Assembly (NCBI GenBank): GCA_012727515.1
Contig: JAAYGZ010000077.1
Coordinates: 1-13,651, forward strand
From: Desulfovibrionales bacterium
GTDB lineage: Bacteria; Desulfobacterota; Desulfovibrionia; Desulfovibrionales; Desulfomicrobiaceae
Reading direction: 5' to 3'
Length of the DNA stretch: 13,651 nucleotides
How positions within the stretch are numbered: position 1 is the first letter of the stretch; each line of letters starts with the position of its first letter. This document shows positions 5,176 to 13,058 of this stretch, one piece after another. The notes beneath the pieces were generated by a model. That model did no database searches and was not told the DNA's origin. It worked only from the letters and a program-made list of their open reading frames with translations. A program made the translations under genes and the position numbers.

Positions 5176-5688
5176 ATGAGCGAAAAAGAAAAGCGCAAAA
5201 TGTTTATCAGCGTACTGCCTGGTGAACAGGTAGAGGTCGCTATCATGGAAGATGGCGTGGTTGTGGAGTACTATGTTGAGATGCTTCACCAAACAAAGAC
5301 AAAGGGCAATATCTACAAAGGTAAAATTCATAATGTTGACCAGGCCCTGCAAGCGGCTTTTATCAACTATGGCGCAGAAAAGAATGGTTTTTTACAGGTA
5401 GATGAAGTCCACCCAGAGTATTACCTCTCAGAAGTGCCAGCCAGAGGCAAATACCCCCCACTGCAAAAAGTACTTAAGGCCGGACAAGATGTCCTGGTTC
5501 AGGTGGTTAAGGAGCCTACAGGATCTAAAGGCGCGTTTTTAACCACGTATTTATCTATTCCCGGGCGTTATTTTGTCTTAACCCCTGGCCGGGAGCAGCT
5601 TGGTATTTCCCGCAAAATTGAAGATGACAAAGAGCGCGAACGCCTGCGCGGCATTGTCGAGGAATTTAAGCTGGATGAAGGTCTGTGA
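5176..5688 (+). CDS. rng: RNase E/G, N-terminal part before an in-frame TGA
   Basis: RNase E/G cuts single-stranded RNA in mRNA decay and rRNA processing. This 170-codon part opens MSEKEKRKMFISVLPGEQVE, then YYVEMLHQTKTKGNIYKGKI and the S1 RNA-binding domain (about 35-125). It continues through PGRYFVLTP, which matches part of the 5'-monophosphate sensor pocket of E. coli RNase E. It ends LDEGL followed by TGA at 5686-5688, and the same frame then continues without a shift as VIVRTVSEG. E. coli RNase E has PEGMGLIVRT at this place, so the TGA occupies a glycine position and is one base from GGA. The start at 5176 follows family openings; a GAGG lies 14 nt upstream, rather far. ATG 5200 is an alternative. 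Read through, the protein would be 490 residues, the normal RNase G length. It may be a nonsense mutation, sequencing error or readthrough. Confidence 0.8.
   Translation: MSEKEKRKMFISVLPGEQVEVAIMEDGVVVEYYVEMLHQTKTKGNIYKGKIHNVDQALQAAFINYGAEKNGFLQVDEVHPEYYLSEVPARGKYPPLQKVLKAGQDVLVQVVKEPTGSKGAFLTTYLSIPGRYFVLTPGREQLGISRKIEDDKERERLRGIVEEFKLDEGL
5686..5688 (+). other. in-frame TGA interrupting RNase E/G (codon 171)
   Basis: This single stop lies inside an otherwise continuous RNase E/G frame from 5176 to 6648. Homology is unbroken on both sides in the same frame, so it is not a frameshift. TGA is used as an ordinary stop by other genes here (for example at 994-996 and 7207-7209), so a changed genetic code is unlikely. 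I could not see a convincing selenocysteine insertion hairpin downstream. A 5-bp stem CAAGC/GCTTG with a bulge lies about 30 nt on, but its loop lacks the expected GGU-type signature. Confidence 0.85.
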
Positions 5689-5694
5689 GTTATT

Positions 5695-6648
5695 GTGCGC
5701 ACTGTGAGCGAAGGGCAAAGCAAAAGCAGCTTGTCGCGGGACCTGCAATTTTTGAAACGCCTGTGGAAGGATATTCGTAAGCGTGGCATTGGTTCTGAAT
5801 CTCCGTGTGTTATCTACGAAGAAAAGGATTTGGCTTTTCGGGCCATTCGCGACTACCTGACGCATGATATTGCTGAGTGCTGGGTGGATGATGAAGAAAC
5901 ATCTGCGCAGCTTATTGAATTTTCTGCACTTATTTTTCCTCGCCGCAAAACATTTATTAAAGTCCATACAGAAACAGAGCGAACTCTTTTTGAACGCTTC
6001 AGGATTGAAGCTCAGTTGCAGAAAATCTTCAGCCGCCATGTGACTTTGCCCAGTGGTGGGCAACTGGTTATTGACCATACTGAAGCATTGACCGCCATTG
6101 ATATCAATTCCGGAAAAATAGGCGGAGAAAAAAATTTCAAGGAAATGGCCTTGCGCACCAATATTGAGGCTGCCCAGGAAATTCCCCATCAGCTTATGTT
6201 GCGGGATATTGGCGGGCAGATTGTGGTGGACTTCATTGAGATGAAGGACGGCAAGCATATCCGCGACGTGGAAAAGGTATTGCGTCAGGCCCTTAAGGTG
6301 GACCGGGCGCGTACAGATATCGGGCGTATTTCCAAGTTTGGCTTGTTAGAAATTGTGCGCCAGCGTCTTGGCACCTCGGCCTTGTCCAACAGCCTGGAGC
6401 CATGTCCGCATTGCGCTGGAGCAGGGACGCGCCGTAACCTGGAATGGCGTTCCATGCAGGCACTCAAAGATATGTACCGTGAATTACGCAAAGATCGGAG
6501 CACAGAGCCGTTTACCTATCAGACCGATGCGGATTTGATGCAGTATCTGCTCAATCGCAAACGCGAAAAGCTCATGCACTATGAGCAACTCTTTATGCGC
6601 AAGATCTTTATTGCACCGTCAGCCATAGCTAGTTGCGCGTTCTGTTAG
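5695..6648 (+). CDS. rng: RNase E/G, C-terminal catalytic part after the TGA
   Basis: This part continues the RNase E/G frame in the same phase. Its codons 2-3 (Arg-Thr) correspond to R169-T170 of the E. coli RNase E 5' sensor. Counted on the joined protein, the DNase I-like catalytic core carries AIDINS (Asp309) and VVDFIEM (Asp352), equivalent to the metal-binding Asp303 and Asp346. CPHC (Cys410, Cys413) is the Zn-link motif. The protein ends about 50 residues after the core, like RNase G and without the long RNase E scaffold. If translated separately, GTG 5695 lies 6 nt after the stop, so coupled restart is possible, but no well-placed Shine-Dalgarno is seen. Such a fragment would lack the S1 domain. 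Its stop TAG overlaps the ribosome binding site of queH. Confidence 0.82.
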   Translation: MRTVSEGQSKSSLSRDLQFLKRLWKDIRKRGIGSESPCVIYEEKDLAFRAIRDYLTHDIAECWVDDEETSAQLIEFSALIFPRRKTFIKVHTETERTLFERFRIEAQLQKIFSRHVTLPSGGQLVIDHTEALTAIDINSGKIGGEKNFKEMALRTNIEAAQEIPHQLMLRDIGGQIVVDFIEMKDGKHIRDVEKVLRQALKVDRARTDIGRISKFGLLEIVRQRLGTSALSNSLEPCPHCAGAGTRRNLEWRSMQALKDMYRELRKDRSTEPFTYQTDADLMQYLLNRKREKLMHYEQLFMRKIFIAPSAIASCAFC

Positions 6649-6657
6649 GACCGGGGT

Positions 6658-7209
6658 ATGAAAGTTCTGGTTCATCTTTGTTGTGGACCGTGTGCCATTG
6701 CTCCTGTGCAGGCCCTGCACGATGCCGGGATGGATGTTGTGGGTTTATACTACAATCCCAACATTCATCCGCTTCAAGAATATCTGCGCCGTCGTGAAGG
6801 TGTGACTGATGTTGCACACCGTCTTGGATTTCCAGTTATTTACAAGGATGATGAATACGATCCAGCGCTGTTTTTCCGGGCAGTAAGCTTTCGGGAAACC
6901 CAGCGCTGTGTGCCGTGTTATTCTTTGCGCCTGGAGCGCACTCTCTCCATTGCTCGCCGAGGGCAGTTTGATGCCTTTACCACAACACTTTTGTACAGCA
7001 AATTTCAAAAACATGAGATGATTCGCGAAGTTGGAGAAAACCTGGCCCAAGGCTCTGGCTTGAGTTTTGTATATCAGGATTTCCGTGAAGGATGGTCAGC
7101 AGGCATTGCCCAGTCCAAAGCCTGGGGAGTGTATCGGCAACAGTATTGCGGGTGCCTGTACAGCGAAGGAGAGCGCTATGCGAGAGACTTGCGCAAGCTG
7201 TACGCCTGA
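6658..7209 (+). CDS. queH: epoxyqueuosine reductase QueH
   Basis: QueH reduces epoxyqueuosine to queuosine in the wobble position of GUN-anticodon tRNAs. It replaces the unrelated QueG in many bacteria. The 183-residue product has the family signatures in order: HLCCGPC (Cys8, Cys9, Cys12), CVPC (Cys84, Cys87) with YSLRLERT behind it, TTLLYSKFQKHE near 108-120, and YCGC (Cys164, Cys166). The cysteines serve as metal and iron-sulfur ligands or redox residues in this family. The ATG at 6658 is preceded by AGGA at 7 nt, inside the RNase stop region, and the gap is 9 nt. The 3' end overlaps hemW by 32 nt, so translation is likely coupled. Confidence is very high. Confidence 0.96.
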   Translation: MKVLVHLCCGPCAIAPVQALHDAGMDVVGLYYNPNIHPLQEYLRRREGVTDVAHRLGFPVIYKDDEYDPALFFRAVSFRETQRCVPCYSLRLERTLSIARRGQFDAFTTTLLYSKFQKHEMIREVGENLAQGSGLSFVYQDFREGWSAGIAQSKAWGVYRQQYCGCLYSEGERYARDLRKLYA

Positions 7210-8374
7210 GTCTGTGCTTGTCTATGTGCATGTTCCGTTTTGCGTGCGTAAATGCCGTTATTGCGCGTTTGTGTCTCAGACCTATTCCGTGGAGGCAGTC
7301 CAAACGTACATGGCCCTTCTTGAGCAGGAAATGGCGTGGTGGGCCGGGCAGTATGGACGTTTGCGCGCCACGACCGTGTATATAGGGGGTGGTACGCCTT
7401 CCTTGTTGACTCCGGCGCAGGTTGCGCGCTTGTTTGATGCTTTGGAGCGGTTTTTTGATCTGGGTCAGGTCCGGGAAATTACCTTAGAGGCCAACCCTGA
7501 ATCTGTAATGGCCCCTGGTTTTTTAGACACGGCCCGCGAGCGGGGAGTGTCTCGCATAAGTTTAGGTGTACAGAGTTTTCATGACCATGCCTTGCGTATG
7601 CTTGGACGGCCCCATGATCGACAAAAAGCACTCCAGGCTGCTCATGCTGTTCGCACAGCAGGAATTGCTGCCCTGAGTCTTGACCTGATGTGGGGCTTGC
7701 CAGGCCAGAGCCTTGAAATGTGGCATGATGATCTGCAGCAGGCTATTTTTTTGGAACCAGAACATCTTTCCTGCTACTGCTTAAGCCTGGAACAGGGGAC
7801 AGAGTTGGCGGGCTGCGTGCTGGACAACACATTGACTCTGCCAACAGAGGAGTGCGCGGTCCAGATGTTTGAGCATGGGTGTCTGGCCCTGGATCAGGCT
7901 GGCTATGAACAGTATGAAATTGCAAATTTTGCCCAACCCGGACACATATGCCAACATAATTGGGGATATTGGACCGGGCGGTCATACCTGGGCCTAGGGC
8001 CGGCAGCTGTTTCAACCATGCATGGGAAGCGCTGGACCAATGCTTTTTCCCTTGATGCCTATGCACATGCACTTGCTGCTGGCATACTGGGCAAGGATGC
8101 AGAGGAACTGGACGCACACACACAGCTGCATGAGATGGTCATGCTTTCTTTGCGCACCAGTGCCGGGCTTGATCTGAGCCATTTTCAGGCCAGGGCAGGA
8201 TGGGATTTTTTGCACTGCACAAGCAGTATTGTCGAGCAGCTCTGCACCAGTGGTCTGGCCAGAATCTGCTCCAACCATTTTTCTTTAACCCGAGAGGGTA
8301 TGCTGGTCAGCAACACTATTCTTGCCACGGTGCTTGAATGTATGGACCATTATGCCTCAGCGGGCAATATGTAG
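7178..8374 (+). CDS. hemW: HemW, radical SAM heme chaperone / coproporphyrinogen oxidase-like
   Basis: HemW is a radical SAM protein related to HemN that binds heme and is thought to deliver it to target proteins. The 398-residue product has the cluster motif CVRKCRYC (Cys22, Cys26, Cys29) after YVHVPF. It lacks the extra cysteine of true HemN, which argues for HemW. GGGTPS at 70-75, ISLGVQSF, DLMWGLPGQ and the HNWGYW-YLGLGPAA block follow in family order, with a C-terminal HemN_C-type domain. The start at 7178 is set by AAGGAG 7 nt upstream; the frame is open back to 7067, but that part lies inside queH. It overlaps queH by 32 nt and is followed after 6 nt by the helicase gene. Confidence 0.93.
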   Translation: MRETCASCTPESVLVYVHVPFCVRKCRYCAFVSQTYSVEAVQTYMALLEQEMAWWAGQYGRLRATTVYIGGGTPSLLTPAQVARLFDALERFFDLGQVREITLEANPESVMAPGFLDTARERGVSRISLGVQSFHDHALRMLGRPHDRQKALQAAHAVRTAGIAALSLDLMWGLPGQSLEMWHDDLQQAIFLEPEHLSCYCLSLEQGTELAGCVLDNTLTLPTEECAVQMFEHGCLALDQAGYEQYEIANFAQPGHICQHNWGYWTGRSYLGLGPAAVSTMHGKRWTNAFSLDAYAHALAAGILGKDAEELDAHTQLHEMVMLSLRTSAGLDLSHFQARAGWDFLHCTSSIVEQLCTSGLARICSNHFSLTREGMLVSNTILATVLECMDHYASAGNM

Positions 8375-8380
8375 GACGTT

Positions 8381-10507
8381 ATGAGAGATCAAAAGAGTAA
8401 TGGGCATCCAGCACTGGATGCATCCACACACAGCAAAACAAACAATGAATTTTCGCTGCACGACTTGCCGCAGGCCCTGCAGGAAGCCATAGCGCGTATG
8501 CACTGGGCAGAACTCATGCCTGTGCAGCGTCAGACCTTGCCGCCCATGCTGGATGGTCAGGATGTGATGGTGCAATCCCAAACAGGCAGTGGAAAAACAG
8601 GCGCATTTTTATTGCCAATGATGCATAGGATTGATGCATCGTTAGGTGTGCCGCAAGCCCTGATTTTAGTGCCAACCCGCGAGTTGGCTGTGCAGGTGTG
8701 CCGGGAGGCTGAGGGCTTGGTGCAGGGCACTGGACTGCGCGTTTTATCTATTTATGGCGGAGTTGGTTACAAAGGGCAGATTGATGGGCTTGCGCAGGGA
8801 GCGCAGCTTATTGTCGGCACTCCTGGCCGAATTTTAGATCATTTGCTCAAAGGAACCTTGAATCTTGATCAGTTGCGCATGCTTGTTTTTGATGAGGCAG
8901 ATCGCATGCTGTCCATGGGTTTTTATCCTGACATGAAACAATTGCAGCGCTACCTGCCTCGTGGGCTGCAATCAGCTATGTTTTCCGCCACATATCCTGG
9001 TCATGTGCAGCGTCTGGCCCAGCAGTTTTTGCAAGATCCGATTTTGTTGTCTTTAAGTCAGGATCATGTTCATGCTACTGATGTGTTGCATGTGGTTTAT
9101 AAAGTTCCGGCCATGCAAAAAAGTCGCATTCTGGTTAAAGTTATAGAACAGGAAAATCCAGCATCGGGCATAATTTTTTGCAATACAAAGGCAGATGTGC
9201 ATTTTGTGTCCACGGTACTACAGCGTTTTGGCTATGATGTTGGGGAATTAAGCGCGGACTTAACCCAGGCGGCCCGAGAAGCTGTGCTGGAAAAATTACG
9301 ACACAATAAGCTCAAGTTTCTGGTGGCCACGGATGTGGCTGCTCGGGGCATTGATATTCATGAATTATCGCATGTTTTTCAGTATCAGCCACCCCAGGAT
9401 CATGAAGCCTACATTCACCGGACAGGGCGAACCGGACGGGCAGGGGCAGCAGGCGTGGCTATTTCTTTTGTGTCCGGCATGGAAGAAATTGAGCTAGATC
9501 AGATCGCCAAGAAATTTTCCATCACCATGCATGAACGCAGCCTGCCGGCAGATGAAGAGCTGGAAGTGCTGATTTCTCAACGAGCAGTGGCCTTGTTGGA
9601 AGCCAAATTGCGCGACGCAGACAATATCTGCAAGGAACGAATGGGCCGTTTTATGCGCACAGTAGCTGATCTGGCCACAAATGAGGATTCTTGCACGCTT
9701 TTGGCCATGCTGATTGATGATTTTTATCAGAAAACATTTCACGCACCTTTGGAACAGCCTTCAGAAAAGTTAGTACGTGCTGTGCGCCCGGAGCCTGCCA
9801 CGCAATCACGAGGAGGCAATGCGGTCAGCACTGGCGAGAGTCAGGAGAAAAAACGGCGCAAACGCGGGCGGAAAAAAACAGCCTCAGAGACAGTGCCTGC
9901 AGATACAGCGGTGACTGCGGAGCAGGTTAGTTTGTCCAGACCAGAGGAGATATCTGGCCCGCGCGGGCAAAGTATCCTTGAACATGCTATCCCTGCGCAT
10001 GACCCAGAGCCAGCGCCACTACCTGCTGCGACACAGCCCCAGGGGCAGGAGGCTGCGGATTTTGACTTTGGTCTGGACTCTATCTGGGATCAGCCAGAGT
10101 CTGCTGCAGAAAATGGGAATGCTGCAAAAAAACGCCGTCGCCGCCGGCCACGCAAGCCTGCTGGATCAAAAAATGGAACCAATGGCATACAGGCAAGCGC
10201 AGAACGATCTGTTGTACCTGCCCTTCAGGAAGAAGCGCGTCAGCCAGGAGAATCAGGGCAGGAGCCTAAAAAAGGACAAACCAAAAATAATGCATCAAAC
10301 GGTGCGGTAAATGGAGCTCCAGGCGGAGCATCAAATGGAGCACCAAGCGGAGCAACTGAGAAACAGCAAAACCCGCAGCGCAAGGAGCGCTCAGATACGC
10401 ATGCTCATGGTCAAACACGCGAGCCCCAACGTTCTGGCAAACAGGCTACACAGCATGTGCCGACCAAAGCTCCGGCCAAACCGAAGAAAAAAATATTTCT
10501 TGAGTAA
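8381..10507 (+). CDS. DEAD-box ATP-dependent RNA helicase with long basic tail
   Basis: The 708-residue product has a complete helicase core: a Q-motif region MPVQ at 46-49, SQTGSGKT at 66-73, PTREL at 98-102, TPGR at 147-150, DEAD at 171-174, SAT at 202-204, IIFCNTK at 264-270, ATDVAARGID at 316-325 and HRTGRTGR at 346-353. A helical region follows to about 455. The last 250 residues look disordered and carry two basic patches, KKRRKRGRKK (490-499) and KKRRRRRPRK (583-592), plus an acidic/aromatic DFDFGLDSIWD (560-570) and a short tandem repeat. Such tails bind RNA or partner proteins. The core resembles the RhlE/CsdA type, but I cannot assign the subfamily. The gene lies 6 nt after hemW with GGA as ribosome binding site. 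Unwinding of structured RNA beside RNase E/G is the likely role. Confidence 0.93.
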   Translation: MRDQKSNGHPALDASTHSKTNNEFSLHDLPQALQEAIARMHWAELMPVQRQTLPPMLDGQDVMVQSQTGSGKTGAFLLPMMHRIDASLGVPQALILVPTRELAVQVCREAEGLVQGTGLRVLSIYGGVGYKGQIDGLAQGAQLIVGTPGRILDHLLKGTLNLDQLRMLVFDEADRMLSMGFYPDMKQLQRYLPRGLQSAMFSATYPGHVQRLAQQFLQDPILLSLSQDHVHATDVLHVVYKVPAMQKSRILVKVIEQENPASGIIFCNTKADVHFVSTVLQRFGYDVGELSADLTQAAREAVLEKLRHNKLKFLVATDVAARGIDIHELSHVFQYQPPQDHEAYIHRTGRTGRAGAAGVAISFVSGMEEIELDQIAKKFSITMHERSLPADEELEVLISQRAVALLEAKLRDADNICKERMGRFMRTVADLATNEDSCTLLAMLIDDFYQKTFHAPLEQPSEKLVRAVRPEPATQSRGGNAVSTGESQEKKRRKRGRKKTASETVPADTAVTAEQVSLSRPEEISGPRGQSILEHAIPAHDPEPAPLPAATQPQGQEAADFDFGLDSIWDQPESAAENGNAAKKRRRRRPRKPAGSKNGTNGIQASAERSVVPALQEEARQPGESGQEPKKGQTKNNASNGAVNGAPGGASNGAPSGATEKQQNPQRKERSDTHAHGQTREPQRSGKQATQHVPTKAPAKPKKKIFLE
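10307..10354 (+). repeat. 24-nt tandem repeat in the helicase tail
   Basis: Two adjacent 24-nt units encode VNGAPGGA and SNGAPSGA, in frame, with a third partial unit (SNGA) just before them. It is a small Ala/Gly/Asn-rich repeat within the low-complexity tail and may vary in copy number between strains. Confidence 0.7.
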
Positions 10508-10573
10508 AGCCTGAGATTGATCTTTGCGGTGCCTCATGCGAGAAATCCAGGACAAGGGCAGTCAGGAGGTGGC

Positions 10574-10948
10574 ATGAAAGAACTGGACGGTGAACGACGC
10601 AGAAGAAGTCGGGTACACTTAGAATTTCCACTGACCATCATGTATAATAACCTTTATGTGCGTGGAATTTTGCATGATTTGAGCCTGAAAGGGCTTTCCT
10701 GCGCCATGGAACAGGAAATTGCACGTGGCACAGAGTGCGAAGTAACCCTGGAGTTGGACTCTGGGCTGCGAATTCGGATTAAAGGCGTGGTTGTGCGCAG
10801 CGGAGAGGACGGAGCCATTGATTTTGTGAGTATGGATGAAATAAGTTTCAACCATTTGCGTAATCTGGTTCGACTCTATGCCGAGGACGCTGATGTGGTG
10901 GACGATGAACTGCGTATCCCTGCTTTTTCAGCAATGACTAAGGACTAA
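10574..10948 (+). CDS. PilZ domain protein (probable c-di-GMP receptor)
   Basis: The 124-residue product is essentially one PilZ domain. It has the arginine-rich RxxxR motif (RRRRSR, residues 8-13) and D-x-S-x-x-G as DLSLKG (35-40), the two elements that bind cyclic di-GMP. Alternating beta-strand segments follow (VTLEL, IRIKGVVVR, GAIDFVSMD) and then a C-terminal helix. The start at 10574 has AGGAGG about 4-5 nt upstream and is preferred to the frame extending to 10517. It lies 66 nt after the helicase and could be its last operon partner or separately transcribed; I see no clear promoter in the gap. As a free-standing PilZ protein it could act on motility or surface attachment, but its target is unknown. 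The 3' end overlaps the converging radical SAM gene by 11 nt. Confidence 0.9.
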   Translation: MKELDGERRRRSRVHLEFPLTIMYNNLYVRGILHDLSLKGLSCAMEQEIARGTECEVTLELDSGLRIRIKGVVVRSGEDGAIDFVSMDEISFNHLRNLVRLYAEDADVVDDELRIPAFSAMTKD

Positions 10949-11876
10949 AGTGTGGGGACAGCGGATAACCCAGGGCCTGGCCCTGCCAGGTATTGGTGCG
11001 CTGTAGCAGGGCCTCAATATCCCGCAGCAGGGCACGTTTGTCTCTGGCCCACTGGGGGGCAACAAGTTCATCACCGCTTGGATCTGCATTTAAACGATGA
11101 ATGACAATGTCCGGGCGCAGCAAGGCCAGGCCCTGGACTGTCCAGGCAATGGTTTCGTCGCGCTCAAGCAGGGTGAAAGAGCTGTTGCGCCACTGCTGTT
11201 CCATGGCTGATCCCTGGCAGATGAAAAGGTTATGGATTTTGATTCCTGATACAGGCAGGCAGTTGACAAAGGCTATAGTTTGTTTGAAGTCCGCCAGGGT
11301 TTCACCGGGCAGTCCGGTAATGACGTGTGCGCATACTTTCAGCCCATATCGTGCGGCCTGGGTGGTCCAATGGGCAAAACAATCTGCATCATGCCCGCGC
11401 TGAATGCGTTGCAATGTACGTTCATGGGCGCTTTGTAATCCCAGGTCCAGCCAGGTTTGTGGCCATGGCATACTGGCAATGAGGCGGAGTTTGTCCTCAT
11501 CCAGGCAATCAGGTCGGGTACCAATGGCCAGTCCAACGAGATCAGGCAGATCCTGTAAGGCGAGCAGAATTTTTTCCAGTCGTTTGACAGGTCCGTAGGT
11601 ATTGGAGAAAGACTGTAGGTAGGCCATGAAACGGGCTGTGGGCATGGACCGACGGTATTTGTCTCTCCACGCAGCATACTGCATTTCCAGTGTTAGCCCC
11701 TGTTCTGCCAGGCCAGTGCCTGAACCTCGCTGATTGCAAAACGTGCAGCCATGCCGGGAAAGAGAGCCATCACGGTTAGGGCAGGAACTGTTGGCATCAA
11801 GAGGTATTTTTTGCACCCGATGTCCGAAGATGGTTCGGAAGTAGGTGGAAAGCGCCAGGTATCGTTTGTGATTCAT
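10938..11876 (-). CDS. TIGR01212 family (YhcC-like) radical SAM protein
   Basis: The 312-residue product starts with RYLALSTYFRTIFGHRVQKI and has a spaced cluster motif C-x11-C-x2-C (Cys32, Cys44, Cys47; CPNRDG then GCTFC). This is characteristic of the TIGR01212/YhcC family rather than the standard CxxxCxxC. GTRPDCL near 119-125, DLGLQSAHERTL near 143-154 and HVITGLPGET near 183-192 follow as expected. The biochemical function of this family was not established to my knowledge. The start at 11876 fits the family opening, although no good Shine-Dalgarno precedes it. The gene is divergent from mreB (141 nt between starts) and ends tail to tail inside the pilZ 3' end. Confidence 0.9.
   Translation of the reverse strand: MNHKRYLALSTYFRTIFGHRVQKIPLDANSSCPNRDGSLSRHGCTFCNQRGSGTGLAEQGLTLEMQYAAWRDKYRRSMPTARFMAYLQSFSNTYGPVKRLEKILLALQDLPDLVGLAIGTRPDCLDEDKLRLIASMPWPQTWLDLGLQSAHERTLQRIQRGHDADCFAHWTTQAARYGLKVCAHVITGLPGETLADFKQTIAFVNCLPVSGIKIHNLFICQGSAMEQQWRNSSFTLLERDETIAWTVQGLALLRPDIVIHRLNADPSGDELVAPQWARDKRALLRDIEALLQRTNTWQGQALGYPLSPHFSP

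Positions 11877-12002: not shown

Positions 12003-13058
<1,056 letters not shown>

What the first reader, a model, noticed from the sequence alone, without database searches (positions are those of the whole stretch)
5176..6648. RNase E/G gene interrupted by one in-frame TGA beside the 5'-sensor Arg-Thr
Homology to RNase E/G runs without a frameshift through TGA 5686-5688. The codon corresponds to the second glycine of PEGMG-IVRT in E. coli RNase E and lies four codons before the Arg-Thr that contacts the 5'-monophosphate. If it is real, the cell makes either a truncated S1-containing piece plus a restarted catalytic piece, or a full protein by readthrough. Splitting exactly at the 5' sensor would separate 5'-end recognition and S1 binding from the catalytic core. 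Alternatives are a recent GGA-to-TGA mutation, a sequencing error or an unusual recoding. The catalytic aspartates and Zn-link cysteines are all intact, which argues against long-standing decay.
Basis: partly seen in the sequence, partly recalled or inferred. Interest (0 to 1): 0.7.

Follow-up and report, generated by a model that had tools for sequence, protein, structure and literature searches.

The report
Stray stop codon in RNase E/G gene
An otherwise normal RNA-cutting enzyme gene carries one stray stop codon that its examined relatives lack, most likely a single-base error in a fragmented draft genome or a recent chance mutation, so it is ordinary.

Summary
In detail: window 5176-6648 encodes a Rne/Rng-family RNase E/G, open in one frame except for TGA 5686-5688, which aligns with Gly165 of E. 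coli RNase E, four codons before the Arg-Thr pair of the 5' sensor. A split or recoded enzyme is not supported. Glycine stands there in 50 of 50 relative loci read (about 40 genomes; 15 of 15 same-genus). Otherwise the gene is as conserved as intact ones: of 220 columns invariant in 29 other loci it differs at two, this codon and one P-to-A. tRNA-Sec and SelB exist, but no locus read has Cys there and the RNA from the TGA on folds worse than 198 of 200 shuffles. Context: the assembly has 453 contigs, and a 0.39-Mb sample of its 2.32 Mb holds a second stray stop, a TAG in htpG where 14 of 14 aligned relatives have Gln. This is what base errors in a draft give; a real, recent nonsense allele is the main rival. 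Reads were not available. Interest is low.

The parts
5176..6648 (+). RNase E/G (Rne/Rng family) gene, 490 codons plus terminal TAG, one internal TGA
5176..5685 (+). piece before the TGA, 170 aa: S1 domain and start of the RNase_E_G domain (5' sensor)
   Evidence: PF00575 (23.1 bits, cut-off 22) and PF10150 positions 1-39
5686..5688 (+). in-frame TGA; aligns with Gly165 of E. coli RNase E; glycine in 50 of 50 relative loci read
5695..6648 (+). piece after the TGA if restarted at GTG 5695, 317 aa: Arg-Thr pair, catalytic part, CPHC motif, RNase_E_G_Thio domain

Best explanation
The TGA is an isolated single-base nonsense codon in an otherwise normal RNase E/G gene, most likely a base error in the consensus of a fragmented, probably thinly covered draft genome. 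The living cell then makes one ordinary 490-aa enzyme with a 5' sensor. Shown: one stop, glycine in the relatives read, otherwise normal conservation, a second isolated stop elsewhere in the assembly. Inferred: that the base is a read or consensus error, and that coverage is thin; neither reads nor coverage were available.
For: Gly at the site in 50 of 50 relative loci, about 40 distinct genomes. Of 220 columns invariant in the 29 other loci, the gene differs at 2 (this codon and P102A); in the same leave-one-out test the other loci differ at 0 to 4, save L025 (16, of which the 12 shown are unread residues), so there is no sign of decay. The assembly is in 453 contigs. A codon-model scan of 387,485 sampled bases, 275 coding segments, listed 17 same-frame pairs across a stop; I judged 15 to be gene boundaries by eye and two to be mid-gene stops: this TGA and a TAG in htpG. 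The TAG stands where 14 of 14 aligned same-genus copies have Gln (1 of 15 relatives searched had no match). Two nonsense codons imply about 54 substitutions, about 2 in 10,000 coding bases, a rough figure. PMC11017572 (abstract and passages seen) reports that low coverage and low-quality reads create spurious internal stops.
Against: No reads, coverage or second assembly of the species could be examined. Both hit genes may be dispensable, so true nonsense alleles remain possible. Two events is a small number, and the sample is about a sixth of the genome. The codon-model control on a relative was too noisy to use.
Confidence: 0.68

Rival explanations
1. A real and recent nonsense allele, fixed or in part of the population. 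The cell loses full-length RNase E/G, with RNase Y and other RNases carrying the load, or gets traces by near-cognate readthrough.
For: RNase Y is over the cut-off in 14 of 16 genomes of the genus searched, this one included; the two below it are this genome and G009. Here only its two ends are seen, at the ends of contigs C11 and C143, which fits an assembly gap. No decay elsewhere in the gene is also what a recent mutation would show.
Against: A second unrelated housekeeping gene is hit the same way in the sample, which points to a process acting on the assembly. 14 of 15 same-genus relatives have one full-length match without a stop; the fifteenth, G008, has two overlapping matches without a stop and some unread residues.
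Confidence: 0.27
2. A working split enzyme: a 170-aa S1 piece and a 317-aa catalytic piece restarted at GTG 5695 reassociate, uncoupling 5'-end sensing.
For: GTG lies six bases after the TGA, and both pieces are conserved.
Against: Not seen in the 50 relative loci read; the codon is Val in 47 of 50 of them; no clear ribosome-binding site at normal spacing by eye; the cut lies inside the 5'-sensor region.
Confidence: 0.02
3. UGA is recoded, as selenocysteine or by a suppressor tRNA.
For: tRNA-Sec (86 bits) and SelB (372 bits, cut-off 242) are in the genome.
Against: The position is glycine, not Cys, in 50 of 50 loci. The 60 bases from the TGA on fold at -11 kcal/mol against a mean of -16.4 for shuffles, 198 of 200 folding at least as well. 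In the 37 plus 2 loci scanned by ARAGORN, which hold all 33 tRNA matches and tRNA-Sec, only tRNA-Sec has the UCA anticodon; Phe, Cys and Ile tRNAs were not among them, so the list is incomplete. The htpG stop is TAG, which a UGA-reading tRNA would not explain.
Confidence: 0.02

Closest known systems
Rne/Rng family ribonuclease (TIGR00757; E. coli RNase E catalytic half, PDB 2bx2)
   Same: Same family profile along its length, catalytic Asp motifs, CPxC motif, Arg-Thr of the 5' sensor
   Different: One stop codon at the Gly165 position; 490 aa, so without a long C-terminal half; below the cut-offs of the RNase E and RNase G equivalog models
Spurious pseudogenes from assembly base errors (PMC11017572, abstract and passages seen)
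   Same: Isolated internal stops in otherwise intact conserved genes of an assembly
   Different: Read coverage of this assembly is unknown here, so the cause is not shown

Membership tests
Rne/Rng family (TIGR00757) | Whole-protein score over curated cut-off | tested here: met
   456.3 bits against 325.95, with X at the stop; neither piece alone reaches it (158.6 and 280.9)
Rne/Rng family (TIGR00757) | Catalytic Asp motifs and CPxC link | tested here: met
   AIDIN at residue 307, VVDFIEM at 350, CPHC at 410; aligned to 2bx2; their roles are recalled
Selenoprotein | UGA at a position with Cys or Sec in homologues | tested here: not met
   Gly in 50 of 50 loci
Selenoprotein | SECIS hairpin just after the UGA | tested here: not met
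   No stable fold, z = +1.97; Rfam gave only two sub-threshold matches elsewhere in the window
Selenoprotein | Sec machinery in the genome | tested here: met
   tRNA-Sec and SelB; selA and selD not tested
Assembly base error | Stop absent from reads or other assemblies of the species | not testable with these tools
   no reads; protein database off; metagenome scans capped at 0
Assembly base error | Further isolated stops in conserved genes of the same assembly | tested here: met
   one more found in the sample: htpG TAG on contig C125

The most novel reading that the evidence does not exclude
The TGA is real and fixed, and this Desulfomicrobium lineage makes a two-piece RNase E/G whose S1/5'-sensor piece and catalytic piece are separate polypeptides, or has dropped RNase E/G in favour of RNase Y.
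Probability: 0.04. Interest if true: 0.5.

Novelty: not a real feature. Interest (0 to 1): 0.07.

Why it matters
Mostly as a caution: a lone stop at a functionally striking site in a draft genome should be weighed against the rate of stray stops in the same assembly. If the stop were real, it would show that RNase E/G can be lost or split in a bacterium whose genus also has RNase Y.

Tried and rejected
Selenocysteine: rejected on glycine in the relatives read and no stem-loop. Suppressor tRNA: no UCA anticodon besides tRNA-Sec among the tRNAs scanned; list incomplete. Second RNase E/G copy: none found. Long-standing pseudogene: rejected on normal conservation.

Scans. The first codon model was too weak and found nothing, not even the test case; it was replaced by a fourth-order frame model. 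The same scan on the relative G015 (400 kb) listed several dozen pairs; I read most as antisense shadow frames of a codon-biased genome without checking each, so it is no clean control. In the own sample 17 pairs were listed; the 15 called gene boundaries were judged by eye from a Met within about 20 residues after the stop, and only the one before SelB was tested by family search. A first homology scan (G015 open frames against 403,274 own bases) gave 50 pairs and 18 rows with stops; only rng was taken as a real mid-gene stop, the others read as antisense or upstream frames, not checked one by one; no frame-change row was printed. A second kept 34 stretches (11,155 codons) in the own sample, 5 rows with stops: rng, htpG, one with a stop at position 10, and two with several stops as in antisense frames. 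With G015 as target it kept 35 stretches (10,840 codons), 7 rows with stops: five within the first 19 residues, one at 43 of 501, one at 76 of 90, the last two not resolved. That scan's references included loci fetched for rng and htpG, so its 2 of 34 is not an unbiased rate.

Papers. RNase E with in-frame stop codon and readthrough: one paper listed, on RNA structure, not opened. Metagenome-assembled genomes with premature stop codons, sequencing errors and pseudogenes: none. Desulfomicrobium with selenoprotein: 12 papers, 8 listed, none opened. RNase E R169 T170: 7 listed, passages of one seen. Internal stop codons in metagenome-assembled genomes: 4 listed, abstract and passages of one seen.

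Full report
What is there. Window 5176-6648 is one Rne/Rng-family gene. Read with X at TGA 5686-5688 it gives 490 aa, scores 456 bits on TIGR00757 (cut-off 326) and matches PF10150 and PF20833, and S1 near its cut-off. It is below the cut-offs of the RNase E and RNase G equivalog models, so I call it RNase E/G. It is the only PF10150 match of the genome held. The alignment to E. coli RNase E 2bx2 puts the X on the second glycine of PEGMGLIVRT, by my count Gly165, with residues 175-176 at Arg169-Thr170. PMC6202311 (passages seen) says that R169 and T170 take part in recognising the terminal phosphate.

Whose genome. The assembly has 2,323,168 bases in 453 contigs, 93.94% complete, 4.04% contaminated. 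That the assembly is a metagenome draft is also inference.

The site in relatives. The search covered 120 genomes, this one included; 118 of the 119 others have a match, a few of them partial. All 15 same-genus relatives have glycine. Five relatives were listed with one stop: in four it is the last or last-but-one residue of the matched stretch, and in the fifth (G035, L037) it lies seven residues before the end of the alignment, past the usual C-terminus. G062, a 43% complete draft, has frame changes in the gene but glycine at this site.

State of the gene. Over 30 loci (L010-L039), 220 columns are invariant in the other 29; the window's gene differs at two, the stop and P102A. Other loci differ at 0 to 4, save L025 with 16, of which the 12 shown are unread residues. 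Loci with a close sister differ at 0 almost by construction. Within the genus (15 loci, L025 dropped) the window's gene has 13 private changes at 383 columns, against 19 at 389 for L024, 6 at 376 for L023, 2 at 372 for L012 and 0 for the rest: it looks like a divergent but working copy.

Other stray stops in the assembly. A frame-specific codon model on 387,485 sampled bases (275 coding segments) listed 17 same-frame pairs with coding signal close to both sides of a stop. By eye 15 were gene boundaries with a Met soon after the stop; two were not: the rng TGA and a TAG on contig C125. The latter sits in htpG (579 bits on NF003555, cut-off 371); the locus had come in through a tRNA search, not through htpG. 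Of 15 same-genus relatives searched, 14 have a match, all 14 with Gln at that place. At 3.7% nonsense among random substitutions, reckoned on seven genes of the window, two nonsense codons imply about 54 substitutions, or 2 in 10,000 coding bases; this is a rough estimate from two events. PMC11017572 (abstract and passages) reports that low coverage and poor reads raise spurious internal stops. The control scans on a relative are told under Tried and rejected; they show no clear mid-gene stop in a long match but leave two rows unresolved.

Recoding and splitting. tRNA-Sec and SelB are present, but the site is glycine in the relatives read and the RNA from the UGA on is unusually unstructured. 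Among the tRNAs scanned, which include all 33 matches, only tRNA-Sec has anticodon UCA; Phe, Cys and Ile tRNAs were not seen, so the set is incomplete. A TAG in htpG would need another suppressor. A restart at GTG 5695 is possible, but that codon is Val in 47 and GTG in 32 of 50 relative loci, and none of them shows a split there.

If the stop were real. RNase Y passes the cut-off in 14 of 16 genomes of the genus, the misses being this genome and G009. In this genome only profile positions 3-70 and 477-514 are found, each at a contig end, which fits a gap. Loss of RNase E/G might thus be tolerated, so a real nonsense allele stays at about 0.27.

Verdict. Observation confirmed; explanation ordinary. 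Reads at this base would settle it.

Noticed in passing
L117 / L226 (G000:C125, about 8995-10413, minus strand): htpG is interrupted by one in-frame TAG where 14 of 14 aligned same-genus copies have Gln.
   Followed up: yes
G000:C11:3067-3180 and G000:C143:3-206: The two ends of an RNase Y gene lie at ends of two contigs; the middle was not found, which fits an assembly gap.
   Followed up: partly
L233 (G062:C39:3400-5100): The RNase E/G gene of a 43% complete relative is broken by several frame changes, as in a poor draft.
   Followed up: partly
L185 (G000:C325) 9818-11722 and L002 (G000:C254) 1501-1594: SelB and tRNA-Sec genes, so the organism can probably make selenoproteins.
   Followed up: partly
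window 7178-8374 and 12012-13058: HemW-like and MreB genes, both open and over their family cut-offs.
   Followed up: partly
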